DNA of 10,863 bases from Deltaproteobacteria bacterium RIFOXYA12_FULL_61_11 (GTDB taxonomy: Bacteria > Bdellovibrionota_F > JAHFAK01 > YA12-FULL-61-11). The notes under the pieces are model-generated. The model was not told the origin of the DNA and made no database searches. It saw only the letters and a program-made list of their open reading frames with translations. Below are positions 1-10,446 of this stretch, in pieces; the first letter of the stretch is position 1; each line of letters opens with the position of its first letter. A program made the translations under genes and the position numbers. The DNA is taken from NCBI GenBank assembly GCA_001799195.1, contig MGSU01000124.1, positions 7,299 through 18,161 on the forward strand. The letters run 5' to 3'.

Positions 1-587
1 AGCCGATGCAGGCGATAGAACTGCCGATTGTCGAGTCCCAGGGTATCGTCGCGACGCCGTCGGTGTAGCGTGCTCAGCAGGGCGTCCTGCTCTTTTGCCC
101 AACCTATCGCCTGGGCGAGGTTTAGGGCCTCGATCGGCGTGAAACGACGGCCGAGTTCCGCGGCGAGAATCTCCAAGCGAGCGAGGAGGAAGTCGCGGCC
201 AAGCGGCCCGCGCTCGCGGGGCAGACCGAGGAACCAGGTAGGCAACTCGGGAAGCAGGGAGTCGTGCACCAAGGTAGCCAGGTTCTGGAGGGAATCGCAG
301 GTGTGCGGCACGAGGAACCCGTCGAGGAGTTTTCCCCGTCGGGAAAGCACCAAGTCGAGGACGCCTTTGACGATCGGACACACGGTCGGCTGGAGATGGA
401 TCCCGGCCTCGCTCCCTTCGACCGGGGGATCCCAGATTTCGACCGGGAGGACCCCGCAGGCCCAGAACAGTTCCCGCGGATAGATCGCCGGCGCGACCCC
501 GACCACTGCCCGGCCGCGTTCCCGTTGCCTGGCAAGATAAGCCGACCGGCTCTCTTCGGCTCCTTCCACCGCTCGCCTCTTTTGCAT
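1..587 (-). CDS. 2-hydroxyacyl-CoA dehydratase family protein (HgdB/BcrC-type), N-terminal part
   Basis: The gene runs off the left edge. The frame is open from ATG at 587 to position 1, giving 195 visible codons. The protein begins MQKRRAVEGAEESRSAYL and continues with VGVAPAIYPRELFWACGVLP, typical of the 2-hydroxyacyl-CoA dehydratase D-component family (2-hydroxyglutaryl-, phenyllactyl- and related dehydratases, benzoyl-CoA reductase subunits, double-cubane cluster proteins). Cysteines C44, C70 (QPTVCPIVKG) and C97 (VPHTCDSLQN) sit where this family ligates an Fe-S cluster. Members use low-potential electrons, usually from an ATP-driven activator, to reduce or dehydrate substrates; no activator or partner subunit lies in the window. 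A TAG stops the frame upstream of the ATG. An alternative start is GTG at 569, preceded by AAGAGG at good spacing, whereas the ATG has no ribosome-binding site and lies only about 8 nt from the predicted transcript start. Family is fairly sure; exact reaction is unknown. Confidence 0.8.
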   Translation of the reverse strand, partial: MQKRRAVEGAEESRSAYLARQRERGRAVVGVAPAIYPRELFWACGVLPVEIWDPPVEGSEAGIHLQPTVCPIVKGVLDLVLSRRGKLLDGFLVPHTCDSLQNLATLVHDSLLPELPTWFLGLPRERGPLGRDFLLARLEILAAELGRRFTPIEALNLAQAIGWAKEQDALLSTLHRRRRDDTLGLDNRQFYRLHR

Positions 588-601
588 CGTCGAGGGATCA
601 G

Positions 602-630
602 GCTATAGCCCGCTCCGAGCACAGATGCAA
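602..630 (-). promoter_or_regulatory. Candidate sigma-70 promoter of the HgdB-like gene
   Basis: On the minus strand, TTGCAT (630-625) is followed after exactly 17 nt by TATAGC (607-602). Transcription would begin near 595, leaving about 8 nt before the ATG at 587 or about 26 nt before the GTG at 569. The short leader is one reason to consider the GTG start. Call rests on sequence match only. Confidence 0.45.
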
Positions 631-669
631 GTCCCTGCGAAGGTTGCCGTCCCGACCCGGTCAGAGCGA

Positions 670-698
670 TTGACGCAAGCGCGGTCGAGGACTAGGAT
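670..698 (+). promoter_or_regulatory. Candidate sigma-70 promoter of the radical SAM pair
   Basis: TTGACG (670-675) and TAGGAT (693-698) are separated by 17 nt, the optimal sigma-70 spacing. Predicted transcription start is near 705, about 46 nt ahead of the ATG at 751. Its position inside the longer open frame that begins at 625 argues against an upstream start for the first radical SAM gene. Confidence 0.5.
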
Positions 699-750
699 CT
701 GTTTTGTCACGGAACACCCTGCACGAACTCCGAGGTCGACGAGACGGCAC

Positions 751-2238
751 ATGAAGATCCTGCTCCTCTGGCCCAAGGGCTTCGAAACCGTTCAGGTCCT
801 CCCCCTCGCCTTCGCATACCTTGCCTCCAATTGCACCGCCCGCGGCCATGAAACCGCAATCGTGGACTGTGCCCTCCATCGCGCGAATGCCTCCTCGCGG
901 TGGTTGCGACGCGCGCTCCTAGCCCATTCGCCGCGGATCATCGGGATCAGCTTTTGGAGTCAGACCCGCGACGAAGCTCGGGACCTGTTCCGTCTGTGCC
1001 GGCTACTCTTCCCGGACAGTCTCACCCTCGCTGGAGGGATCCATCCCACCCTCTTGCCCAACGACACCCTGGCCTGGCCCGAGGTCGACCTGGTCCTCCG
1101 GGGCGATGGGGAGAGAGCCCTGCCCGACCTCCTCGACCTGTTGGCTCATACTCCCCACGGTCTGCCTCCCGGTAAGAAGCTGGCCACGGTGCCCGGCTTG
1201 TGCTACCGTCGGCCTGACGGCACCACGATCCTCGCGAAGCCGAACCAGCTCGAGGACCTCGATCGACTCGCCTTCCCCGATTACCGCTCCATCGACCTCG
1301 ATGGCTATATCCGGCAAGGCTACGGATTGCACACCACCGTGCGCGACAACGCCCCGGTCTGGATCAGTCGCGGGTGTCCCTATCGCTGCGCCTTCTGTTC
1401 GACCCCGCACAAAGACGGCCGGAAGATCCGCCGGCACGGACTCTCCTATCTGCTGAGGCTCATCGGCACCCTCTACCGTGAACACGACATCCGGCTTATC
1501 AATATTATCGATGACAATTTCACCTATGACCTGGAGTTCGCCAAACAGTTCTGCCGCGCTGTCATCGAACTCGGACTTCCCGGTCTGCGCATGAGTACTC
1601 CCAACGGCATACGGCTCCAACATACCGATGCCGAGCTCTTCGCCCTGATGCGCAGAGCGGGGTGGACCTATGTCGTCGTCGCTCCGGAGAGCGGTTCCCC
1701 AAAAACCCTAGACCGCATGCGCAAGGACGTGAGCCCCGAGCTCTTCCGGTCCAGGACAGGGGAGATCAAGGCCGCCGGCTTGAAGGTCCACGCCTTCTTC
1801 ATCCTCGGGTACCCCGGAGAGACCCGGGAGGACATCGAGGCAACCCGCCGCCTGCTCCGAGACTGCCGCTTCGACTTTTTCTACATGAACAATTTCCAGC
1901 CGTTACCCGGCACCCCGGTCTTCGAGGAATTAGTGGCCTCCGGTGAAATCCGCACCTCGACCCGGCCCGGGAACTACGTCTCAGGTGAACGGGTATACGT
2001 ACCGCGGGACCTCTGCGATTTCGATTTCCCTGCCTTCGTCCTCGGAGAATACTTGCATCAGGCCCTCACGCATCCCGGCAGCCTGCCGAGCATGCTGACC
2101 GCGCTCTCGCCCCGTATCGTCAGTGTCAAAGTACTGCATAACCTCGTGTACTTATTAAGGATCGAAGCCCGGCGCTTCCTGACCAAGGCAGGGTTGCCCC
2201 ATCGCCCCGGGAATCGCTCCTTGGAACCGGGGGAGTGA
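751..2238 (+). CDS. B12-binding domain radical SAM protein (first of tandem pair)
   Basis: A 495-residue enzyme. An N-terminal cobalamin-binding-like Rossmann domain (about residues 1-140) opens MKILLLWPKG and carries the characteristic stretch LTLAGGIHPT followed by VDLVLRGDGE. The radical SAM core follows, with the [4Fe-4S] motif C209-P-Y-R-C213-A-F-C216 (CxxxCxxC), then the usual APESGS and FFILGYPGET motifs. No DxHxxG cobalamin motif is present, which is common in this class. Family members methylate unactivated carbons or rearrange substrates in cofactor, lipid, quinone, pigment and natural-product pathways; the substrate here cannot be told. The frame stays open back to 625, but the extension is Arg-rich, unlike the family and overlaps the likely promoter, so ATG 751 is preferred; upstream GAGACGG gives only a weak ribosome-binding site. 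It is likely co-transcribed with the next gene, which begins 10 nt after its stop. Confidence 0.88.
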   Translation: MKILLLWPKGFETVQVLPLAFAYLASNCTARGHETAIVDCALHRANASSRWLRRALLAHSPRIIGISFWSQTRDEARDLFRLCRLLFPDSLTLAGGIHPTLLPNDTLAWPEVDLVLRGDGERALPDLLDLLAHTPHGLPPGKKLATVPGLCYRRPDGTTILAKPNQLEDLDRLAFPDYRSIDLDGYIRQGYGLHTTVRDNAPVWISRGCPYRCAFCSTPHKDGRKIRRHGLSYLLRLIGTLYREHDIRLINIIDDNFTYDLEFAKQFCRAVIELGLPGLRMSTPNGIRLQHTDAELFALMRRAGWTYVVVAPESGSPKTLDRMRKDVSPELFRSRTGEIKAAGLKVHAFFILGYPGETREDIEATRRLLRDCRFDFFYMNNFQPLPGTPVFEELVASGEIRTSTRPGNYVSGERVYVPRDLCDFDFPAFVLGEYLHQALTHPGSLPSMLTALSPRIVSVKVLHNLVYLLRIEARRFLTKAGLPHRPGNRSLEPGE

Positions 2239-2248
2239 TCGAAAGCCC

Positions 2249-3658
2249 ATGCGCGTCGTCTTCTACCAGCACGACCCCTTCGTCCGCTTGGGAGTTATCA
2301 GTCTCACCAACCTCTTGCGCCGTCACGGGCATGCCAGCGAGGTGGTGGTCGAAAGCGCCCATCGCGAGCCCCTGGCCGTCGTGGCCGCCGCAGCACCCGA
2401 CTGCATTGCCTTCTCGGTGACGAGCGCTCACGCTGCCTGGACCGCGAACGCAGCCCGTCGACTGAGGAAACTGGTGCCCGGTGCCTTGCAGCTCGCCGGG
2501 GGGCCGCACTGCACCTTCAGTCCCGATTTCCTGGACCAGGGTGGTTTCGATTACCTCATCCGCGGCGAAGGCGAAGAGGCCTTGCTCGAACTGCTCGACG
2601 CCCATGAGCGAGGTCGCACCGTCGAGGGCCTTCATAATCTGGTGCGAAGAGGTCCCGGCGGCACGATCCTGTGCGAACCCTTGCGTCCCCTCCTGGAACG
2701 TGCGGCGTTGGACGCGCTCCCGGACGGAGAGCTCCACGCCTATGGCCGCTATCCCGCCATCCTCGAGTATTACCGGCACATGTTCCCCGTGGCAGCCAGC
2801 CGCGGTTGTCCCATGGCCTGCTCCTATTGTTTCAACGAGCGCTACCGCGAACTCTATCGGGGCAAGGGCCGCGCCGTCCGCTGGCGCAGCCCAGAGCGCT
2901 CCGTGGCCGAACTCACCGCGTTGCACCGCCGCTATGCCGTCACCCACTTCGTCTTCGAGGACGATGCCTTCCTCCTCGATCCGGCGTGGTTCCGCGCCTT
3001 CGCCCCTCTGTACCACCGAGAGGTCGGCCTTCCCTTCACCTGCCAGGCCATTGCCCGTTCCATCGACCACGAGAGGATCTCCCTCGCCGCCCGCGCGGGT
3101 TGCCGCTCGATGCGCATCGGGCTGGAAACCGGGGACGAGAAGCGCCGGACGAGCTTGCTCGGGAAAATCGTCAGCGACAACGACCTGCGTCGGGCGACCA
3201 CCCTGATCCGCGCCCATGGCATCAACCTGCAGACCTTCAACATGGTCGGTCTGCCCGAGGAGACCCCGGACCAAGCCCTCTGTACCTATGCGCTCAACCG
3301 CGAACTGGGGACCGACTTTGCCTGGTGCTCGGTGCTCACGCCCTATCCCGGGACCAAGATCGAGCGCACGCTCGGTGCGGGGTCCGCTTCGGAGCCGAGC
3401 GCCTATTTCCGCCCGGGGGAGGCTTGCGCAACCCCAGAAGCAGTGCTCAACCTCCAATCCCTGATGACGCTCGGAATCCTGCTCGGATTGCCGACTACCG
3501 TGATGCGGCATGTGATCCGGCTGCCCAGGTCCGCGCTGCACCCGCTGCTCTTCGAGTTGGCCTTCGCCTATGCCGTCAAGACGCTCAACCAGGTCCCACT
3601 CCTCCCCTTCCTCCGCCTGTCCCTACTCGCCTCGCACTACCTGCGCGAGCGTACCTGA
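2249..3658 (+). CDS. B12-binding domain radical SAM protein (second of tandem pair)
   Basis: A 469-residue protein built like its neighbour. The N-terminal cobalamin-binding-like domain (about 1-120) includes LAGGPHCTF and FDYLIRGEGEEAL. The radical SAM core has C187-P-M-A-C191-S-Y-C194, followed by FVFEDDAF, the MRIGLETGDE segment and TFNMVGLPEET. The C-terminal 65 residues are hydrophobic or amphipathic (LMTLGILLGLP, then LHPLLFELAFAY), suggesting membrane association or a lipid-like substrate. ATG 2249 is 10 nt after the preceding stop. A GGGGGAG tract overlapping that stop, or GAAAG closer in, could serve as ribosome-binding site. The two proteins share architecture but are clearly diverged, so they probably perform successive steps or act on different positions of one substrate rather than being a recent duplication. 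That role is inferred; the family assignment is strong. Confidence 0.88.
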   Translation: MRVVFYQHDPFVRLGVISLTNLLRRHGHASEVVVESAHREPLAVVAAAAPDCIAFSVTSAHAAWTANAARRLRKLVPGALQLAGGPHCTFSPDFLDQGGFDYLIRGEGEEALLELLDAHERGRTVEGLHNLVRRGPGGTILCEPLRPLLERAALDALPDGELHAYGRYPAILEYYRHMFPVAASRGCPMACSYCFNERYRELYRGKGRAVRWRSPERSVAELTALHRRYAVTHFVFEDDAFLLDPAWFRAFAPLYHREVGLPFTCQAIARSIDHERISLAARAGCRSMRIGLETGDEKRRTSLLGKIVSDNDLRRATTLIRAHGINLQTFNMVGLPEETPDQALCTYALNRELGTDFAWCSVLTPYPGTKIERTLGAGSASEPSAYFRPGEACATPEAVLNLQSLMTLGILLGLPTTVMRHVIRLPRSALHPLLFELAFAYAVKTLNQVPLLPFLRLSLLASHYLRERT

Positions 3659-3668
3659 GTCCTCGCGG

Positions 3669-3688
3669 GAATTTCCGGAAGTTCGAAC
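3669..3688. repeat. Overlapping palindromes just after the radical SAM operon
   Basis: GAATTTCCGGAAGTTC (3669-3684) is self-complementary except for one G-T pair, and GTTCGAAC (3681-3688) is a perfect palindrome overlapping its end. They start 11 nt after the stop of the second radical SAM gene. No T-tract follows, so this is not a canonical intrinsic terminator; it may be a protein-binding site or simply chance. Confidence 0.35.
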
Positions 3689-3692
3689 GACC

Positions 3693-3838
3693 GTAACGCT
3701 TCAGTCTTTGGTGGATTGCAGGTTGATTGTCACCACGTTGGGGTGGCACCGACGGGGGTCCCACACCACGCGCAAGGATGAGCATGGTGGGGGTGAGAGG
3801 TGACAGGACCCCGCACATCGTTAAGACTGAAGAGTTAC
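3693..3838. mobile_element. Candidate miniature inverted-repeat element (146 bp)
   Basis: The ends are GTAACGCTTCAGTCTT (3693-3708) and its inverted counterpart AAGACTGAAGAGTTAC (3823-3838), matching at 15 of 16 positions. The immediate flanks GAACGACC (3685-3692) and AAACCACC (3839-3846) agree at 6 of 8 positions, as would a decayed 8-bp target duplication. IS66-family elements have ends beginning GTAA and make 8-bp duplications, so a non-autonomous derivative is conceivable, but no transposase remnant is present. Inside are further complementary pairs: TGTCACC (3728-3734) with GGTGACA (3799-3805), and GGGGTCC (3755-3761) with GGACCCC (3806-3812). A structured RNA leader for the next gene is the main alternative. 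Identity is unproven; the inverted repeat itself is plain. Confidence 0.4.
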
Positions 3839-3857
3839 AAACCACCGCCGGTACCCC

Positions 3858-3886
3858 TTGCCCTTCCGGCCTTTGCATGGTATGGC
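3858..3886 (+). promoter_or_regulatory. Weak candidate promoter of the exported protein gene
   Basis: TTGCCC (3858-3863) and TATGGC (3881-3886) lie 17 nt apart, with TGG directly ahead of the second box as in extended -10 promoters. The -10 box matches the consensus poorly, so this is tentative. It would give a leader of about 44 nt. Confidence 0.25.
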
Positions 3887-3936
3887 AGCAGAACTCGTGG
3901 AGTTGCCGTTCCCGTCCTGAACACGTGAGGAAGAAC

Positions 3937-4608
3937 ATGAACTCCCGGTACGCTCTCCTCCTGGTGCAACTCCCGCTGCTCGGCTTGCTCGCCGCCGGAG
4001 CAGGTCCCTCCTGCCTCGGAGCAGGAACCGACCTCGGCGAGGTCGCCATCGTCTCCTTACCTTATGCGCTCGGCGAGCCCTTCGACCAACGCCTCCAGAA
4101 CTACTACGTCGAGGGCATGGGCGCGAAACCAACCTGGTTCCACGAGCACGTCCAACCGCTCTACGACGACCCTTTGCTCTACCTGCTGGACGACTTCCCC
4201 AATACCGCGACCAGGACCATCGCGAACGGTTGTGCCGAACTCTCCGACGATCCCTTCGAGCAGGTAGCCTGCGCCAGCGGCTCGGTGCACCGCTGGTTGA
4301 TGGACCACCACGAATACCGGAGCGGCGGCCACAGCGCCGAGGGCAACCTGCGCAGCTTCTGCCGCGACCACGCCCGGGCTCTCGACGAGGTGGTCAAACA
4401 TATCCCGGGTTTAGGCCGTGGCGCCATCGGCAACCTCTTCCTCACCACCCACGTCCTCAACACCCTCACCGTGCGCGACGCCGACGGTCTCGCGTATCGC
4501 TATGCCTTCGACGCCGGACACGACAAGACCACCTTGCGGTACTACCCGCTCAACGAAGCGGCGATCCAAGCAGGAAAAACCATCTTCACCGTGCTCGGCA
4601 TAGACTGA
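3937..4608 (+). CDS. Exported protein of unknown family, possible transglutaminase-like Cys-His-Asp hydrolase
   Basis: I do not recognise a named family. The 223-residue product starts MNSRYALLLVQLPLLGLLAA, a clear signal peptide with probable cleavage around residues 22-29 (AGA or LGA). C26 lies near the cleavage site, but GPSC is not a standard lipobox. The mature part has many His and Tyr residues (WFHEHV, WLMDHHEYRSGGH) and cysteines C99, C112 and C142. Around C142 the sequence EGNLRSFCRDHARALDEV looks like the helix carrying the nucleophile of transglutaminase-like proteins. H172 (LTTHVLNTL) and D192 (YRYAFDAGHD) follow in the order and approximate spacing of that Cys-His-Asp triad. This is inference from pattern only. 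ATG 3937 is fixed by TGAGGAAG (3926-3933) just upstream; the longer frame from 3727 would include the inverted-repeat element and is rejected. The gene stands alone between a putative element and a T-tract hairpin. Confidence 0.7.
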   Translation: MNSRYALLLVQLPLLGLLAAGAGPSCLGAGTDLGEVAIVSLPYALGEPFDQRLQNYYVEGMGAKPTWFHEHVQPLYDDPLLYLLDDFPNTATRTIANGCAELSDDPFEQVACASGSVHRWLMDHHEYRSGGHSAEGNLRSFCRDHARALDEVVKHIPGLGRGAIGNLFLTTHVLNTLTVRDADGLAYRYAFDAGHDKTTLRYYPLNEAAIQAGKTIFTVLGID

Positions 4609-4632
4609 ACGAGAGGAAGGCCCTGCCACTGT

Positions 4633-4664
4633 CCTGAGGCCTACCCATGGGTTACAGGTTTTTT
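4633..4664 (+). terminator. Possible intrinsic terminator after the exported protein gene
   Basis: CCTG (4633-4636) pairs with CAGG (4655-4658) around an inner ACCCATGGGT palindrome (4643-4652), followed at once by six T (4659-4664). It sits 25 nt beyond the stop at 4608. The stem is short and interrupted by an asymmetric internal loop, so termination may be partial. A second hairpin, CCGGTG/CACCGG with CCGC/GCGG inside (4674-4700), follows but has no T-tract. Confidence 0.4.
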
Positions 4665-4730
4665 CCGTTCCTCCCGGTGCCGCCGCTCGCGGTTCACCGG
4701 CCTGACCCCGGAATCGAGCACCGAAAGGCA

Positions 4731-4760
4731 TTGCCAAGCGCGCACCCCCTTCATTATAGA
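4731..4760 (+). promoter_or_regulatory. Candidate sigma-70 promoter of the GH57 gene
   Basis: TTGCCA (4731-4736) and TATAGA (4755-4760) are separated by 18 nt, giving a start near 4767 and a leader of about 29 nt before ATG 4796. It lies downstream of the possible terminator, suggesting that the GH57 gene is transcribed on its own. Confidence 0.45.
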
Positions 4761-4795
4761 GAGAAGAGACGGCCATCCACCCGTAGGTGACTCCC

Positions 4796-6850
4796 ATGCA
4801 TTTCATCTTCGCGGTCCACAACCATCAACCCGTGGGCAATTTCGCCGAGGTCCTCGAAAAGGCATACCAAACCAGTTACTTGCCCTTCCTCAAGGTCCTC
4901 GAACGCTATCCGGGCATCACCTTCTCCATGCACACCAGCGGTCCGCTCCTCGACTGGTTGGAGCTGGAGCACCCGGAGTACCTGGACAGCGTCGCCGCCC
5001 TGGTCGAACTCGGCAGGGTCGAGATCCTGGCAGCGGGGTACTACGAACCGATCCTGGCCTCGATCCCGGAAGAAGACCGCATCGAGCAGATCACCCTGAT
5101 GGCCGACTACGCCGAGCATCGCTTCGGGCATCGTCCGCGGGGGCTCTGGCTCACCGAGCGGATTTGGGAACCCTCCCTGGCCAAGACCCTCTGCAAAGCC
5201 GGTATTCGCTATGTCGCGGTCGATGATTACCACTTCTCGACCTCAGGCCGGAGCGGAGCCGAACTCGATGGGTATTTCCTGACCGAGGACGAAGGCCACA
5301 CCCTGGCCGTGTTCCCCATCTCGCAACAACTCCGGTACGCCATCCCCTTCGAGCCTCCCGGCACCTCCCTTGCCATCTTCCGCAAGCACGACCGTGAGGG
5401 CGCGGTCATGGTCATGGCCGATGACGGCGAGAAGTTCGGGGTCTGGCCGCGCACTGCCGAGAAGGTCTTCGGCCGGGGACGTTGGTTGGAACGGTTCTGC
5501 ACCCAACTCGAGAAACACCGGGACTGGCTGCAGACCACGACCTTCTCCGCCTTCCTCGACCGGCATGCGCCGCTCGGCCGGGTCTACCTGCCTACCTCCT
5601 CCTATTTCGAAATGAGCGAGTGGACTCTCCCGACGGCGCTGGGCCGTCGCTATGAGCACCATCTCGAGGACCTCCGCAAGCGCCGCCAACTCGAGCGCTG
5701 GCGGCCCTTCCTGCGCGGCGGTTTCTGGCGGGACTTCCTGACCAAGTACGAGGAGGCCAACTGGATGCACAAGCGTGCCTTGGCCGTATCGGAGGAGCTG
5801 CGTTCCCTGCCGCGGGAAGCCCCTGCCCGACGTGCCCTGTTCAAGGCTCAGTGCAACTGTGCTTACTGGCACGGCATCTTCGGTGGTCTGTACCTCCCCC
5901 ACCTGCGCCATGCCATCTATGCCGAACTGCTCGAGGCCGAGGCCCTGCAGCCCCGTTCCTTGCAACACCACGTCTTCGACCTCGACCGGGATGGACAGGA
6001 CGAGGCAGTCTTGCGTTCCAAAGGGTTGAGCCTCTACCTGACCAAACACGGGGGCGCCATCCGGGAACTGGATCTTCTCGAGAAACGCTTCAACCTCACC
6101 AATACCCTGGCTCGGCGCGTAGAGACCTACCATGCCAAGTTGGCCAAGGCCGTGCTCGACCCGGGTGAGGTCCACTCGGCCTCGATCCACGATCTGATCC
6201 TGGCCAAGGAACCCGGCTTAGACCGGCACGTCTTCCAGGACCAGCAGCAGCGCTGGATGTTGCAAGACCATTTCTTCGACCGAACGGCCACCTGTGCCGC
6301 CTTCCACCGCAACGAACACCGCGAACGGGGGGATTTCCTGAAGGGGCTCTACGAGCTGTCGGTGAGCGATACCGGAGCAGTGCTGACTCGTCAGGGCTCG
6401 GTCGACGGCCAACCCGTGAAGGTGATCAAACGGATCACCCTCGGGGCTGTCGGTCTGAACGTAGTCATCGAGGTACGCAACCTCTCGGACCAGCGTTTGG
6501 AAGCCACCTATGCCAATGAGTGGAACTTCTCCCTGCTCGGCGGCAATTCCCCGGACCGCTATTTTCTCCTCGACGGCGAACCGCCAGAGGCTTCGAACCT
6601 AGCCTCCACGGGCACGGACACGGTGCGCAGCCTGACCATGGTCCTCGAATGGGAGGGTCTATCCCTCGAGTTGGCCTTCCCCGCCCCGACCGAGGTCTGG
6701 CGCCACCCAATCGAGACCGTCTCCATGTCCGAGGCCGGGTTCGAACGGGTCTACCAGTGCTCGGGCATCCTCCCGGTATGGCCGCTCGAACTCGCCCCCG
6801 GCGAGCTCGCGGTCCTCGGTTTCACCTTGACCACCACCTGCCAGAACTAG
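4796..6850 (+). CDS. Glycoside hydrolase family 57, 4-alpha-glucanotransferase/alpha-amylase type
   Basis: A 684-residue cytoplasmic enzyme (no signal peptide) acting on alpha-1,4-glucans, most likely transferring or hydrolysing maltodextrin and glycogen chains. All five GH57 conserved regions are visible: HNHQP (residues 8-12), GRVEILAAGYYEP (73-85), WLTERIWEP with likely nucleophile E121, ADDGEKFG with likely acid/base D210 (208-215), and EEANWMHKR (319-327). The segment YWHGIFGGLYLPHLRHA (358-374) is also typical of the Thermococcus litoralis-type glucanotransferase branch, whose length (about 660) and catalytic positions (Glu123, Asp214) are very close. Residues from about 380 onward form the beta-rich C-terminal domains of that branch (DUF1925/DUF1926). 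ATG 4796 is chosen because TAGGTGA (4784-4790) precedes it; an in-frame GTG at 4787 would add three residues and has no such site. Its TAG stop overlaps the stop of the converging gene. Amylase versus transferase activity cannot be decided by reading. Confidence 0.93.
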   Translation: MHFIFAVHNHQPVGNFAEVLEKAYQTSYLPFLKVLERYPGITFSMHTSGPLLDWLELEHPEYLDSVAALVELGRVEILAAGYYEPILASIPEEDRIEQITLMADYAEHRFGHRPRGLWLTERIWEPSLAKTLCKAGIRYVAVDDYHFSTSGRSGAELDGYFLTEDEGHTLAVFPISQQLRYAIPFEPPGTSLAIFRKHDREGAVMVMADDGEKFGVWPRTAEKVFGRGRWLERFCTQLEKHRDWLQTTTFSAFLDRHAPLGRVYLPTSSYFEMSEWTLPTALGRRYEHHLEDLRKRRQLERWRPFLRGGFWRDFLTKYEEANWMHKRALAVSEELRSLPREAPARRALFKAQCNCAYWHGIFGGLYLPHLRHAIYAELLEAEALQPRSLQHHVFDLDRDGQDEAVLRSKGLSLYLTKHGGAIRELDLLEKRFNLTNTLARRVETYHAKLAKAVLDPGEVHSASIHDLILAKEPGLDRHVFQDQQQRWMLQDHFFDRTATCAAFHRNEHRERGDFLKGLYELSVSDTGAVLTRQGSVDGQPVKVIKRITLGAVGLNVVIEVRNLSDQRLEATYANEWNFSLLGGNSPDRYFLLDGEPPEASNLASTGTDTVRSLTMVLEWEGLSLELAFPAPTEVWRHPIETVSMSEAGFERVYQCSGILPVWPLELAPGELAVLGFTLTTTCQN

Positions 6851-7344
6851 CGCAACTCGACCCAGACTGCCTCCCGAGATCCTCCGCGGGTCGCCTTCTT
6901 CCTCGGCGCTTTCGTGCCGAGGTGATCGGGTCGGCGACGAAGGATCAACGCCGCGAGGAAGGAAGGTCCGTTCCTCAAGACCACAGCCTCTTTGCCGGGT
7001 TCTTCGAGGAGAATGCGCGGTCCTCCCCTCTCGAAGAGCGAGGAATTCCGGCCATAGGCGCTGTTGTAACAACACGCTATCCTGGTCAGCAGCACATGTT
7101 TGAACGCATGGAAAGCCCACGGATCGCAGATGCGGCACCGCACCCCGAGGTGGTCGTCCTCGAGGATGAACTCGAGGAGGTCTATGCCGTACCGCAGCTT
7201 CTCCTCGTGGACGATCGTGCGCAGCAACCAGCGGCTCCGGTCGGTCCGAAAATATTTTCTCCCCTGATGGGTGGCCCAGAAATATTCGACCACCATGCCC
7301 GGTTCCAGGACCGGCATCTTCCGGCTCGCTCTCTCCCGAGGCAT
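6847..7344 (-). CDS. Diverged REP-associated tyrosine transposase-like (Y1_Tnp) protein
   Basis: A 165-residue basic protein. Its opening, LEPGMVVEYFWATHQGRKYF then RTDRSRWLL, parallels the usual start of REP-associated or IS200-like Y1 transposases (PGALYHVTSRGN...IFxDDxDRxxFL). The segment LEFILEDDHLGVR (58-69) sits where the family has its HUH motif (LMPNHFHLL): H65 remains, but the second histidine is replaced by G67. A tyrosine followed by Asn and then GR and LF (ACCYNSAYGRNSSLFERGG, 90-108) matches the catalytic-Tyr region, Y93 being the candidate. The C-terminal third is Arg/Lys-rich and lacks the usual NPVRAG signature. ATG 7344 is preferred over ATG 7362 because GGAGGA (7356-7351) lies 6 nt before it. 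The changed HUH motif suggests an inactive or domesticated protein. Family assignment is moderate; a sequence-unrelated nucleic-acid-binding protein is the alternative. Confidence 0.6.
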   Translation of the reverse strand: MPRERASRKMPVLEPGMVVEYFWATHQGRKYFRTDRSRWLLRTIVHEEKLRYGIDLLEFILEDDHLGVRCRICDPWAFHAFKHVLLTRIACCYNSAYGRNSSLFERGGPRILLEEPGKEAVVLRNGPSFLAALILRRRPDHLGTKAPRKKATRGGSREAVWVELR

Positions 7345-7418
7345 ACCTGTTCCTCCGCCCATGGAGTGTCGGGCCCAGCCTGTATCAAACTCCGTACCAA
7401 CGGGAAGTATCCAGCGAT

Positions 7419-7513: not shown

Positions 7514-7867
7514 TCAATAGGCATGCGTGCCAAGAACCACCTCAATACCGAACTTCTTCTCCAGCGTAAGCTTGAGGGTGTCGAAATCGATGGGACAGTG
7601 CGCGGTTTCCATGGCCAACTTCATACAGGTGCCCAGGTGCAGGACCTCGATGGGCCGCTTCAGGCTCGAGGTGATTTCGGTCAGGAGTTTGACCTTGGGT
7701 ACGACCAAACCCGGACAATCGCCGCAGTCGGTCATGGCCACCAACTCGATGGTGTCGTGCCGACCATACTCGCCGTTCTTCTCGGCCATGCCTTTATAGC
7801 ATTTTGCGCACGCGATACAGGAGAAGTCCTTGACCTTCTTGCAATACACCACCGCGATCTTCGCCAT
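7514..7867 (-). CDS. Cysteine-rich CGGC-domain-type protein, putative metal binding
   Basis: A 117-residue soluble protein, MAKIAVVYCKKV..., with eight cysteines: C9, C17-x2-C20-x2-C23 (SCIACAKC), C48-G-D-C51, C81 (HLGTCMKL) and C91 (AHCPID). The order, the MTDCGDCPGLVVPK segment and the LHLGTCM segment fit the CGGC-domain family of predicted metal-binding proteins (here CGDC rather than CGGC). The biochemical role of this family is not established; the cysteine pattern suggests binding of a metal or Fe-S cluster. ATG 7867 is fixed by AAGGAG 6 nt upstream, which is made from the last two codons of the preceding gene, so the pair is translationally close (3-nt gap) and surely one operon. Control would come from the promoter ahead of the DUF134 gene. 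Confidence 0.8.
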   Translation of the reverse strand: MAKIAVVYCKKVKDFSCIACAKCYKGMAEKNGEYGRHDTIELVAMTDCGDCPGLVVPKVKLLTEITSSLKRPIEVLHLGTCMKLAMETAHCPIDFDTLKLTLEKKFGIEVVLGTHAY

Positions 7868-7870
7868 GTC

Positions 7871-8299
7871 CTACTCCTTCGATGTGAGGTTCTTCTCGGC
7901 TGGTCCTCGCCCTTCCGCCCTTGTTACCCCGGAGCGAGGTGCCCCGCGGTCACCTTGCGTTTCCTGGGCTTCCCGCGTCCCATCGTGCAGCCGGCAACAA
8001 CGATGTCCGTGAGGAAGCACCGGTCCGCCCTCTATCCTCAAGGCCTTGCCGTGGACCAATACATCCGCCACCTTGCGATGGGCGGACTCGATGATCCTGC
8101 TGAAGGTCGGACGGGAGACCCCCATCTCTACGGCGGCCAACTCCTGATACAGCTCTCCGAGATCGGCCAAGCGCAGGGCCTCGAACTCATCGAGGGTCAT
8201 CACCACCTCCTCGAGTTCAGCCACCGGAATGCCGATAGGCTTGAAGATCGCCGCGGCAGGCCGCCCCGCGACGCGCCGCGAATGAAAAGGTCTCGGCAT
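7871..8299 (-). CDS. DUF134/UPF0251 family helix-turn-helix protein
   Basis: A 142-residue probable DNA-binding protein. MPRPFHSRRVAGRP, then IFKPIGIPVAELEEVVMTLD and EFEALRLADLGELYQELAA are characteristic of the UPF0251 (DUF134) family. A helix-turn-helix spans about residues 51-75, with VEMGVSRPTFSRII as turn and recognition helix. After about residue 95 comes a polar, low-order tail with C101-C102. Start ATG 8299 has GAGGTGG (8310-8304) directly upstream. The in-frame ATG at 8329 is rejected because it lies upstream of the predicted -10 box and inside the operator palindrome. It is first in an operon with the cysteine-rich gene 3 nt downstream. The palindrome in its own promoter points to autoregulation. 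Family members are known from sequence and structure prediction only, and the signal sensed is unknown. Confidence 0.85.
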   Translation of the reverse strand: MPRPFHSRRVAGRPAAAIFKPIGIPVAELEEVVMTLDEFEALRLADLGELYQELAAVEMGVSRPTFSRIIESAHRKVADVLVHGKALRIEGGPVLPHGHRCCRLHDGTREAQETQGDRGAPRSGVTRAEGRGPAEKNLTSKE

Positions 8300-8317
8300 A
8301 CGTCCACCTCTTTCGCC

Positions 8318-8346
8318 ATTTTTGGACATAGGTCCACAACTGTCAA
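8318..8346 (-). promoter_or_regulatory. Promoter of the DUF134-CGGC operon
   Basis: On the minus strand, a perfect -35 box TTGACA (8346-8341) is followed after exactly 17 nt by AAAAAT (8323-8318), which matches TATAAT at four positions. Transcription should begin near 8311, so the GAGGTGG ribosome-binding site is almost at the 5' end of the message. The spacer contains the operator palindrome listed separately. Confidence 0.6.
8323..8336. promoter_or_regulatory. Candidate operator palindrome between -35 and -10
   Basis: TGGAC-ATAG-GTCCA is a 14-bp inverted repeat (5-bp arms) lying in the promoter spacer of the DUF134-CGGC operon. On the minus strand the sequence GTGGACCTATGTCC (8337-8324) recurs as GTGGACGTATGCCG (8307-8294), matching at 11 of 14 positions and displaced by exactly 30 bp, about three helical turns. 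A regulator bound here would block RNA polymerase. The encoded helix-turn-helix protein is the natural candidate. Confidence 0.55.
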
Positions 8347-8411: not shown

Positions 8412-8457
8412 TCGCATTGGAGCCATCAAGCCTTGCGACCCATGATTGAAGCCTGAA

Positions 8458-10446
8458 ATGCACCACCTCCCCATTCTCACTGAACTGGCGATCATCACAG
8501 CCCTGGGCGTCATCATCCTGGTGGTGCTCTCGAGGCTGCGCCTACCCGCGGTCGCGGGGTTGCTCGTAGCCGGCGGGCTCCTGGGACCTTCCGGACTGGC
8601 CCTCGTCGAATCGATCGGCACGATCGAGGTCCTGGCCGAGGTCGGCGTGGTGCTCCTCCTGTTCACCATCGGCCTCGAGTTCTCCCCGGAACGTTTGCGG
8701 CCAATCGTGCGTATCATTACCCTGGGCGGTGGGTTGCAGGTCCTCCTCACCCTGGGAGCCACGGTCCTGGTGCTCCTGGTCCTCGGCCGTCCCCTGCAAC
8801 AAGCGGTGTTCTTCGGTTTCGTGGTCGCCCTCTCGAGTACGGCCATCGTCCTACGCGCGCTCGGTGAACGCGGGGAGCTCGATGCCCCGCACGGCCGTTT
8901 CATCGTCGGCATCATGATCTTCCAGGATCTCTGCGTCGTTCCCATGGTGCTCCTCGTACCAATCCTGGCGCTCTCCGGCGGCTTCGGGAGCGTGTTCACG
9001 GATCTCGGCCTCGTCGGCCTCAAAGCCGTACTCGTGCTCGCCCTCGCCTGGACGTCGGCCAGATACTTGGTGCCCACCTTCCTGCACCTGGTCGATGCCA
9101 GCCGCAGCCGCGAGATTTTCCTCTTGGCCGTATTGGGACTCTGCATGGGAATGGCTTGGTTGACCTCTCTGGCCGGTCTCTCCCTGGCCCTCGGCGCCTT
9201 CGTCGGCGGCTTGGTGGTCGCGGGCAGTGATTTCAACCAACGAGCGCTCGGTGAGCTCATCCCTCTGCGCAACGCATTCGTCAGCGTCTTCTTCATCTCC
9301 CTGGGCATGCTGTTCGACGCCAGGATCGTGCTCGAATACCCACTGACAATCCTGCTCCTCTTCACGGGTTTGTTGTTCGGTAAAGCGGCGATCGCCGGCC
9401 TTTGCGCCGTGATCCTCCGCTTTCCCCCTCGAGTCGCTTGGCTGGCCGGCATCGCCCTGGCCCAGTTCGGCGAGTTTGGCTTCGTGCTCCTGCGGTTGGG
9501 GCAGAGCCACGGCTTGGTGACCTCGACCGAAGCGCGGATCATCCTCTCGGCAGGGGTGCTGAGCATGTTCGTGACTCCTTTGCTGATCCGGCTTGCCCCA
9601 CATCTGGCCGCAGGAGAAAAGATCCTCAGCCCGTTGGCCCATTTGTTGCGGGTCCGAGCCCTCGAACCCGGGCACAACCTCGACCAACAGTCCGGCCACG
9701 TCGTCATGATCGGCTATGGGGTTGCGGGGCGCATGGTCTCGCGAGCCCTGGCAGCTTGTGAGGTTCCACGGGTGATCCTCGAATTGAACGTCGAGACCGT
9801 ACGGCGAGCCAGGGCCGAGGGCGAACCGATCTGGTATGCCGATGCTTCCAGCGAAGAAGCCTTGAGCCACGCAGGCGTGCTGCGAGCCCGGGCCGCGGTC
9901 GTCTTGATCAATGATCACCTCGCGGGCGAACGCGTGGTCGAGGCCATCGGCCGGCTCGCCCCTCAGGTCCCCGTGTTCATTCGCACCCGATTTTTTGCCG
10001 ATTTACCGCGCCTTGGTCGGTTAGGAGCATCCAACGTGGTCGTCGACGAGGTTGAAGCAGGGCTCGAAACCGCGGCCCGTCTCCTCCGTAAGTTACAACT
10101 GCCACGCAACCGCATCGAAGAACAGCTCCACCTCGCCCGAGAAGAGACTCAGCATTCCTCGAGACCAGTCGAATTACCCCCTGTGACCCTTAGTGCCAAT
10201 GCCGATCTGCGTTCCCTCGAACTCGAACCGATCGAGTTGACCAACGGCACTCCGACCCAGGGGAAAACCTTGAGGCAATTGGAGCTGCGGGAACGCACCG
10301 GTGCTCTGGTGGTGGCTCGTCGCCGAGCCGGCGTGTTGCAGTTGGATCTCGGACCCGACGAACCGCTCCTCGTGGGCGACATCCTCTATGTGGCGGGTCC
10401 CCACGAGGCCCTGGCGAAGGCCTACACCTATCTCTTGGGGACGTGA
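8458..10446 (+). CDS. CPA2/Kef-type monovalent cation:proton antiporter with RCK (TrkA) domains
   Basis: A 662-residue inner-membrane transporter. Residues 1-385 hold about 12 hydrophobic segments with CPA2 landmarks: RLRLPAVAGLLVAGGLLGPS (26-45), LLLFTIGLEF (66-75), ALSSTAIVLRAL (124-135), and MIFQDLCVVP (153-162), where D157 is the likely ion-binding acid of the FQD motif. A cytosolic TrkA-N (RCK) domain follows, with the nucleotide-binding motif GYGVAG (419-424) and E442 at the end of the second strand. A TrkA-C domain covers about 575-660. By analogy with KefB/KefC and related proteins it would exchange K+ or Na+ for H+ under control of a dinucleotide or other ligand; ion preference is not readable. 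ATG 8458 is chosen; an in-frame TTG at 8446 adds four residues and neither has a clear ribosome-binding site. Its stop overlaps the next gene's start by one base. Confidence 0.92.
   Translation: MHHLPILTELAIITALGVIILVVLSRLRLPAVAGLLVAGGLLGPSGLALVESIGTIEVLAEVGVVLLLFTIGLEFSPERLRPIVRIITLGGGLQVLLTLGATVLVLLVLGRPLQQAVFFGFVVALSSTAIVLRALGERGELDAPHGRFIVGIMIFQDLCVVPMVLLVPILALSGGFGSVFTDLGLVGLKAVLVLALAWTSARYLVPTFLHLVDASRSREIFLLAVLGLCMGMAWLTSLAGLSLALGAFVGGLVVAGSDFNQRALGELIPLRNAFVSVFFISLGMLFDARIVLEYPLTILLLFTGLLFGKAAIAGLCAVILRFPPRVAWLAGIALAQFGEFGFVLLRLGQSHGLVTSTEARIILSAGVLSMFVTPLLIRLAPHLAAGEKILSPLAHLLRVRALEPGHNLDQQSGHVVMIGYGVAGRMVSRALAACEVPRVILELNVETVRRARAEGEPIWYADASSEEALSHAGVLRARAAVVLINDHLAGERVVEAIGRLAPQVPVFIRTRFFADLPRLGRLGASNVVVDEVEAGLETAARLLRKLQLPRNRIEEQLHLAREETQHSSRPVELPPVTLSANADLRSLELEPIELTNGTPTQGKTLRQLELRERTGALVVARRRAGVLQLDLGPDEPLLVGDILYVAGPHEALAKAYTYLLGT

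What the first reader, a model, noticed from the sequence alone, without database searches (positions are those of the whole stretch)
8294..8346. Self-regulated DUF134-CGGC operon: operator inside the promoter spacer plus a second copy 30 bp downstream
Seen: on the minus strand, TTGACA-N17-AAAAAT with a 14-bp palindrome (TGGACCTATGTCCA) filling the spacer. The extended site GTGGACCTATGTCC is repeated as GTGGACGTATGCCG exactly 30 bp on, covering the ribosome-binding site and start codon. Known: DUF134 proteins carry a helix-turn-helix. Inferred: the DUF134 protein binds both sites cooperatively, on the same face of the helix, and represses its own operon; I know of no described operator for this family.
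Basis: partly seen in the sequence, partly recalled or inferred. Interest (0 to 1): 0.6.

Follow-up and report, generated by a model that had tools for sequence, protein, structure and literature searches.

The report
DUF134 proteins' own promoter operator
A widespread, unstudied bacterial protein family (DUF134) appears to switch off its own gene by binding a palindrome inside its promoter, and its DNA-reading helix and the palindrome change together across bacteria, which gives the family a probable function as a regulator of metal-cofactor genes.

Summary
The palindrome is real and it is an operator. On the minus strand, TTGACA (8346-8341) is followed by the dyad TGGAC-CTAT-GTCCA (8336-8323) and a weak -10, AAAAAT (8323-8318). 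Alone the dyad would be unremarkable. However, DUF134 genes from many phyla carry a dyad of the same geometry in their promoter (135 of 203 loci, 4 of 203 shuffled), usually centred 17-18 bp after the first base of TTGACA. Its arms covary with the DUF134 recognition helix: R68N goes with TTAGC (13/13 against 0/100), H64 with TGCTC, and P64+S67, the window's type, with TGAAC/TGGAC. For each of the four variable half-site positions, the most informative protein column lies in that helix. The nearest solved structure, DeoR bound to DNA, has the same SRPT-V/F-SR helix and reads TTGAAC. In 16 other genomes all 17 operator matches precede DUF134 genes. The window's genome holds one further site with the same promoter layout, upstream of a separate orange-protein-like operon (sigma-54 activator, two NifX-type proteins, MinD/Mrp ATPases). 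The claimed second copy 30 bp downstream has no counterpart in relatives and is largely ribosome-binding site plus start codon. Binding, repression and signal remain untested.

The parts
8341..8346 (-). -35 element TTGACA
   Evidence: TTGACA-like hexamers lie in the same register to the dyad in most orthologues and at G000:C195.
8323..8336 (-). DUF134 operator, dyad TGGAC-CTAT-GTCCA inside the promoter spacer
   Evidence: Same geometry and register in DUF134 promoters of many phyla. Arm bases covary with the DUF134 recognition helix.
8318..8323 (-). Weak -10 element AAAAAT, 17 bp from the -35
   Evidence: 4 of 6 consensus matches; relatives have CATAAT or TATAAT in nearly the same place.
8304..8311 (-). 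Shine-Dalgarno AGAGGTGG of the DUF134 gene
8294..8307 (-). Claimed second operator copy GTGGACGTATGCCG; judged a coincidence of Shine-Dalgarno, ATG and CCG
   Evidence: 11/14 match; no other orthologue has a match of 11 or more within 60 bp; chance estimate.
7871..8299 (-). DUF134 gene (PF02001), true start ATG at 8299 (MPRP...), 142 aa; predicted autoregulator
   Evidence: E 7.6e-22. Conserved MPRP start. AlphaFold2 model with the HTH region at pLDDT above 90.
8096..8113 (-). Codons 63-68 (R-P-T-F-S-R), start of the recognition helix
   Evidence: Helix 63-83 in the model. Columns 63, 64, 67 and 68 have the highest mutual information with the variable operator bases.
7514..7867 (-). CGGC-domain gene (PF08821), 117 aa, 3 bp after the DUF134 stop, same operon
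   Evidence: E 2e-21; spacing.

Best explanation
The DUF134 protein is a small helix-turn-helix repressor that binds, as a dimer, the dyad TGGAC-N4-GTCCA lying between the -35 and -10 of its own promoter. It thereby blocks RNA polymerase and limits transcription of DUF134-CGGC. In this genome the same protein very probably also controls, in trans, a separate orange-protein-like operon (PAS/sigma-54 activator, two Nitro_FeMo-Co proteins, MinD-type Fe-S ATPase, Mrp) whose promoter bears the site TGCACCTATGTCCA in the same place. The family follows a recognition code: Arg68 reads the G of TGnnC, Arg63 the C/G pair of the arm, and residues 64 and 67 the two middle bases. Shown here by computation: conservation, register, covariation, genome-wide specificity and the second site. 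Inferred: binding, dimerisation, repression rather than activation, and a metal or Fe-S-related signal that releases the repressor.
For: Operator-like dyads precede 135 of 203 DUF134 genes against 4 of 203 in shuffled regions. Excluding the Asn68 class, 69 of 117 sites are bracketed by -35/-10 hexamers with 16-18 bp spacers; the rate at random positions is 4%. For each of the four variable half-site positions the best of all protein columns lies in the recognition helix: position 4 with R68 (0.42 bits; next column 0.20), 5 with P64, 6 with P64 and S67, 7 with R63; positions 3 and 8 hardly vary and have no such partner. R68N goes with TTAGC/TTGGC in 13/13 against 0/100; S/T/H67 with A6 in 17/21 against 1/92; H64 with TGCTC in 5/5 against 0/108. 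A third lineage adds SR[G/A]T[V/I]QR with TGTGC. The window (RPTFSR) and its nearest relative L042 (RPTFSR, TGAACCTATGTCCA) fit; relatives in the same clade with A64 or T64 have GAGC/GGGC. The best solved match is the DeoR DNA-binding domain on operator DNA (7bhy, 0.7 A over 41 residues), helix SRPTVSR, operator ATTGAACA..., with DeoR R39, equivalent to R68, contacting G4 (PMC11229326). In 16 genomes all 17 sites precede DUF134 genes; reversed-pattern control 0. In the window's genome, of 17 dyads or near-matches only the window's and the one before the orange-protein-like operon have TTGACA 6/6 in register.
Against: No experiment. Phylogenetic independence is only partly shown: on well-supported branches there are only 1-2 independent contrasts per residue, too few for a sign test. 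About a third of DUF134 genes, including the whole SRPTVTR group, show no such site, some probably because they sit inside an operon. The site finder favours a CATATG centre. The window's -10 is weak. The window and C195 come from one draft binned assembly, so the shared genome is an assumption. Repression is inferred from site position only.
Confidence: 0.82

Rival explanations
1. The dyad is an operator, but DUF134 activates from it (for example like MerR proteins, which bind promoter spacers) instead of repressing.
For: The site lies in the spacer, as MerR-type sites do.
Against: MerR-type promoters have overlong 19-20 bp spacers that the protein corrects (own knowledge). Here the spacers are 17 bp in 52 of 69 bracketed cases and -35/-10 are often near consensus, so no activator should be needed. 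In the Asn68 group the site sits mostly 35-37 bp after the first base of the -35, over the -10/start, which suits only a repressor.
Confidence: 0.1
2. Two cooperative sites: the second copy at 8307-8294 is a real lineage-specific operator that also blocks translation initiation.
For: 11/14 match at exactly 30 bp, about three helical turns; shuffled downstream regions reach 11 or more in roughly 0.3% of loci.
Against: No other orthologue has it; 7 of 11 matches coincide with Shine-Dalgarno, ATG and the CCG of MPRP; its right arm fits poorly; the second site of the same genome at C195 shows no such repeat.
Confidence: 0.1
3. The dyad is bound by another regulator that controls DUF134 operons, and DUF134 only accompanies it.
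For: None specific; a conserved operator alone does not name its protein.
Against: Arm bases covary with exactly the DUF134 recognition-helix residues; one site per DUF134 gene in genomes with one or two copies; G143 has two paralogues, RPTFSR and RPTFGR, whose sites are TGAAC and TGAGC respectively.
Confidence: 0.05
4. Chance palindrome, or an RNA hairpin in a leader.
For: A perfect 5-N4-5 dyad in 150 bp occurs by chance in about 14% of regions.
Against: Conserved geometry and register to the -35 across phyla; it lies upstream of the expected transcript start, so it is not in the RNA.
Confidence: 0.02

Closest known systems
Bacillus subtilis DeoR (SorC/DeoR family), PDB 7bhy and 8r7y
   Same: Same HTH fold and recognition-helix motif (SRPTVSR against SRPTFSR), best structural match, and the same TGAAC half-site in its operator ATTGAACAAAATTTCAAT...ACATATGTTCAA (PMC11229326).
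   Different: DeoR has a large C-terminal sugar-phosphate-binding domain and acts as a tetramer on a 39-bp operator. DUF134 is about 110-150 aa without that domain and has one compact dyad in the promoter spacer.
DUF134 / UPF0251 (PF02001)
   Same: The window protein is a clear member.
   Different: Nothing on an operator or function was found in the papers held; the operator and code described here are the addition.
Orange protein (orp) operons of Desulfovibrio vulgaris (PMC6345978, PMC3897727)
   Same: The trans target at C195 has the same kinds of parts: sigma-54 activator, NifX/ORP-type proteins, MinD-type ATPases with 4Fe-4S motifs, Mrp.
   Different: In D. vulgaris the orp operons are described as driven by sigma-54 and DVU2106; no DUF134 operator was found in the passages read. 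Here a sigma-70-type promoter with a DUF134 site precedes the activator gene.
Sigma factor region 4 (for example SigD4, SigE region 4)
   Same: HTH of the same shape.
   Different: DUF134 reads a palindrome rather than a single -35 element.

Membership tests
DUF134 (PF02001) | Match above the Pfam gathering score | tested here: met
   78.1 bits against 27; conserved MPRP start and HTH.
DUF134 (PF02001) | HTH with recognition helix | tested here: met
   AlphaFold2 model: helices 52-59 and 63-83, HTH region at pLDDT above 90; DeoR HTH as best match.
CGGC domain (PF08821) | Match above the Pfam gathering score | tested here: met
   76.6 bits against 27.
Conserved DUF134-CGGC operon | CGGC adjacent to DUF134 in relatives | tested here: not met
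   Among 80 loci only L042 and L059 have a CGGC relative in the fetched DNA, about 2.4-2.5 kb from the DUF134 gene; the usual next gene is Nitro_FeMo-Co (29 of 60).
SorC/DeoR repressor family | C-terminal effector-binding domain | tested here: not met
   Only about 47 low-confidence residues follow the conserved domain.
SorC/DeoR repressor family | HTH reading TTGAA-type half-sites | tested here: met
   By sequence pattern only: helix alignment; DeoR operator; DUF134 S67 type with TGAAC.
Autoregulatory promoter-occluding repressor | Operator overlapping its own promoter | tested here: met
Autoregulatory promoter-occluding repressor | Protein binds the operator and lowers transcription | not testable with these tools
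   Needs gel shift and reporter assays.
MerR-type activator | 19-20 bp spacer containing the operator | tested here: not met
   Spacer 17 bp in the window and 16-18 bp in relatives.
orp-like operon as regulon member | DUF134 site in its promoter in the same genome | tested here: met
   TTGACA-GAAA-TGCACCTATGTCCA-TAAT at G000:C195:4843-4856 upstream of Sigma54_activat, Nitro_FeMo-Co x2, CbiA/Fer4, ParA.

The most novel reading that the evidence does not exclude
DUF134 is a phylum-spanning family of single-dyad autorepressors with a readable helix-to-operator code (residues 63, 64, 67, 68 with half-site bases 7, 5, 6, 4), dedicated to NifX/orange-protein/Mrp metal-cluster gene sets and sensing the state of those clusters; in the window's lineage the regulator moved away and controls the orange-protein-like operon in trans.
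Probability: 0.45. Interest if true: 0.75.

Novelty: new member of a known kind. Interest (0 to 1): 0.62.

Why it matters
DUF134 (UPF0251) is found in bacteria and archaea, often beside NifX/orange-protein-type genes, and its Pfam entry still reads 'unknown function'. An operator and a four-residue recognition code turn it into a directly testable regulator family, allow its targets to be predicted in genomes where it is not next to them (as for the orange-protein-like operon here), and offer a natural series of matched helix/operator pairs for work on DNA-recognition codes.

Tried and rejected
1) A regulon search with the strict dyad TGRACN4GTYCA in the whole genome gave 15 sites against 12 for the reversed control, and with 3 mismatches no excess: no large regulon. 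Only requiring the promoter register singled out two sites. 2) Sites L014, L015, L033 and L233-L244 were looked at as further targets and dropped: no -35 in register. 3) A sigma-54 promoter inside C195: 29 matches with up to 3 mismatches against 29.9 expected, no evidence. 4) Viral contigs: no relative. 5) E. coli genomes: no match. 6) Literature: the papers naming DUF134, UPF0251 or COG1342 that were opened held nothing on an operator, and several were only prefix matches such as DUF1343. The 2011 D. vulgaris orp paper and the DeoR DNA-binding-domain paper are not held. 7) Formal independent-pair tests on the tree: too few supported branches. 8) MerR-type activation and a second cooperative site were considered and rated unlikely. 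9) Laying out the whole genome was not possible, so genome-wide tests used the search tool.

Full report
WHAT WAS CHECKED. The stated sequence elements exist exactly where described on the minus strand: TTGACA 8346-8341; dyad TGGAC-CTAT-GTCCA 8336-8323 (12 of 14 positions symmetric, perfect 5-bp arms); AAAAAT 8323-8318 after a 17-bp spacer; and a 14-mer 30 bp further on (8307-8294) that matches at 11 of 14. The gene is DUF134 (PF02001, E 7.6e-22) followed after 3 bp by a CGGC-domain gene (PF08821, E 2e-21). The true start is the ATG at 8299 (MPRP..., conserved in the family), not the upstream in-frame ATG at 8329, which lies inside the dyad. A perfect 5-N4-5 dyad within 150 bp has about a 14% chance, so the palindrome alone is not strong evidence.

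CONSERVATION. Ten DUF134 loci from unrelated genomes, 80 named loci from many phyla and 111 unnamed loci, all but one from one large phylum, were examined. A dyad of the same geometry, most often TTATGAGC-N4-GCTCATAA, lies upstream of 135 of 203 genes at a score reached by 4 of 203 shuffled regions. Excluding the Asn68 class, 69 of 117 sites are flanked by recognisable -35 and -10 hexamers with 16-18 bp spacing (4% at random positions), and the first -35 base lies 17 or 18 bp before the centre in 64 of these 69. The distance to the start codon varies far more (-90 to -27). So the site is tied to the promoter and acts at the DNA level. Genes without it include members that probably lie inside operons and the whole SRPTVTR group.

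RECOGNITION CODE. Across 113 non-redundant pairs, mutual information between every protein column and each half-site position ranks recognition-helix residues first for each of the four variable positions: R68 for position 4 (0.42 bits, next 0.20), P64 for 5, P64 and S67 for 6, R63 for 7; the nearly invariant positions 3 and 8 have no such partner. Because all columns share the same phylogeny, this ranking is itself a control. Counts: Asn68 with TTAGC/TTGGC 13/13 and never otherwise (0/100); S, T or H at 67 with A6 in both arms 17/21 against 1/92; His64 with TGCTC 5/5 against 0/108; Gln63 mostly with T7 (5/6 against 2/107). A third lineage adds SR[G/A]T[V/I]QR with TGTGC-N4-GCACA. Related or same-genome contrasts agree: L066 (S67, GAAC) beside L065 (A67, GAGC); the window's clade, where A64 or T64 relatives have GAGC/GGGC while P64 relatives mostly have GAAC, GCAC or GGAC; G143 with two paralogues and two matching operators. 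The window's helix is RPTFSR and its operator is of the expected type; its closest relative, L042 from an Eisenbacteria MAG, has RPTFSR and TGAACCTATGTCCA. Limits: on well-supported tree branches only 1-2 independent contrasts per residue remain, too few for a formal test, and some loci in the two collections appear to be the same contigs (equal contig lengths), which the 85% identity filter removes.

STRUCTURE. No DUF134 structure was found by sequence. The AlphaFold2 model has a confident HTH with the recognition helix starting at residue 63. Its best match among solved structures is the DeoR DNA-binding domain on operator DNA (7bhy, 0.7 A over 41 residues, Foldseek E 0.05). DeoR carries SRPTVSR where the window has SRPTFSR. 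The DeoR operator begins ATTGAACA and its right half contains ACATATGTTCA; DeoR R39 contacts G4 (PMC11229326). R34 and R39 are five residues apart like R63 and R68, so R39 corresponds to R68, the residue that covaries with that same G. The residue matching is my inference from the alignment.

TARGETS. In 16 DUF134-bearing genomes (about 58 Mb) the consensus with up to 2 mismatches occurs at 17 places, every one in front of a DUF134 gene by its coordinates (compare), and 0 times for the reversed control. The typical target is therefore the regulator's own operon, whose next gene is Nitro_FeMo-Co (NifX/orange-protein type) in 29 of 60 cases; CGGC is a rare partner. In the window's own genome the four Nitro_FeMo-Co matches lie on other contigs, two of them on C195. 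Upstream of that cluster is TTGACAGAAATGCACCTATGTCCATAAT (C195:4843-4856, minus): the same promoter layout, 13 of 14 operator bases, and the same unusual CCTATG centre shared by the window and L042. The genes that follow are a PAS/sigma-54 activator, two Nitro_FeMo-Co proteins, a double MinD-type ATPase with 4Fe-4S motifs and an Mrp-type ATPase cut by the contig end, the parts of an orange-protein operon as described for D. vulgaris (PMC6345978; PMC3897727). Of 17 dyads or near-matches inspected in the genome, only this one and the window's have TTGACA 6/6 in register. I read this as one regulator with two targets, the second in trans.

SECOND COPY. Searching 60 bp downstream of the operator in 121 loci, only the window (listed twice, as L001 and window) reaches 11 of 14, and the distribution otherwise resembles shuffled sequence. 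Seven of its 11 matches are the GTG of the Shine-Dalgarno, the ATG, and one C of the CCG that starts the conserved MPRP codons; four chance matches in the other seven positions have probability 0.07. I regard it as a coincidence, with about 10% left for a lineage-specific second site.

MECHANISM. Most likely the DUF134 dimer sits on the spacer and excludes RNA polymerase. 17-bp spacers and mostly good hexamers argue against a MerR-like activator. In the Asn68 group the dyad lies over the -10/start region instead, which also suits repression. The signal is unknown. The window's clade ends in a conserved RCC-x-x-HD tail, several other members have a Cys4-type tail, and the neighbours are metal-cluster proteins, so a metal or Fe-S signal is a fair guess (inference only).

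NOVELTY. In the papers held, no operator for DUF134, UPF0251 or COG1342 was found; most subscription papers are not held, so this is not proof. The kind of system, an autoregulating HTH repressor, is well known. The family assignment, the operator, the code and the orange-protein link appear new.

Noticed in passing
L249 (G000:C195) 3-4856, minus strand: Orange-protein-like operon: PAS/sigma-54 activator, two Nitro_FeMo-Co proteins, fused double MinD/4Fe-4S ATPase, Mrp-type ATPase, under a sigma-70-type promoter with a DUF134 site.
   Followed up: yes
window 7982-8002 (minus strand); L042-L048 DUF134 C-termini: The window's DUF134 clade shares a C-terminal RCC-x-x-HD motif, a possible metal site; most of these relatives also have Cys at residue 6 or residues 6-7 (PFCC), where the window has PFHS.
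   Followed up: partly
L122, L123, L125, L126, L128-L130, L142-L146, L149, L151, L160, L166, L173: A DUF134 group with helix SRPTVTR shows no dyad of this type upstream; its binding site, if any, is different or elsewhere.
   Followed up: no
L059, L067, L091, L097, L106, L107 and other Asn68 loci: In the R68N group the dyad TTAGCATATGCTAA lies mostly 35-37 bp after the first base of the -35, over the -10/start, instead of inside the spacer.
   Followed up: partly
window 8446-10446, plus strand: Divergent Na+/H+ exchanger with TrkA_N/TrkA_C domains (KefB-like) starts about 110-120 bp from the operator; whether it is co-regulated is unknown.
   Followed up: no
window 6847-7362, minus strand: 171-aa ORF about 150 bp downstream of the CGGC gene, on the same strand, with no Pfam match.
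   Followed up: no
L011 (G023:C14) 1495-2166: DUF134 fused in one protein to a Nitro_FeMo-Co-like domain (read from the sequence, not scanned), which would support the functional link between the two families.
   Followed up: no
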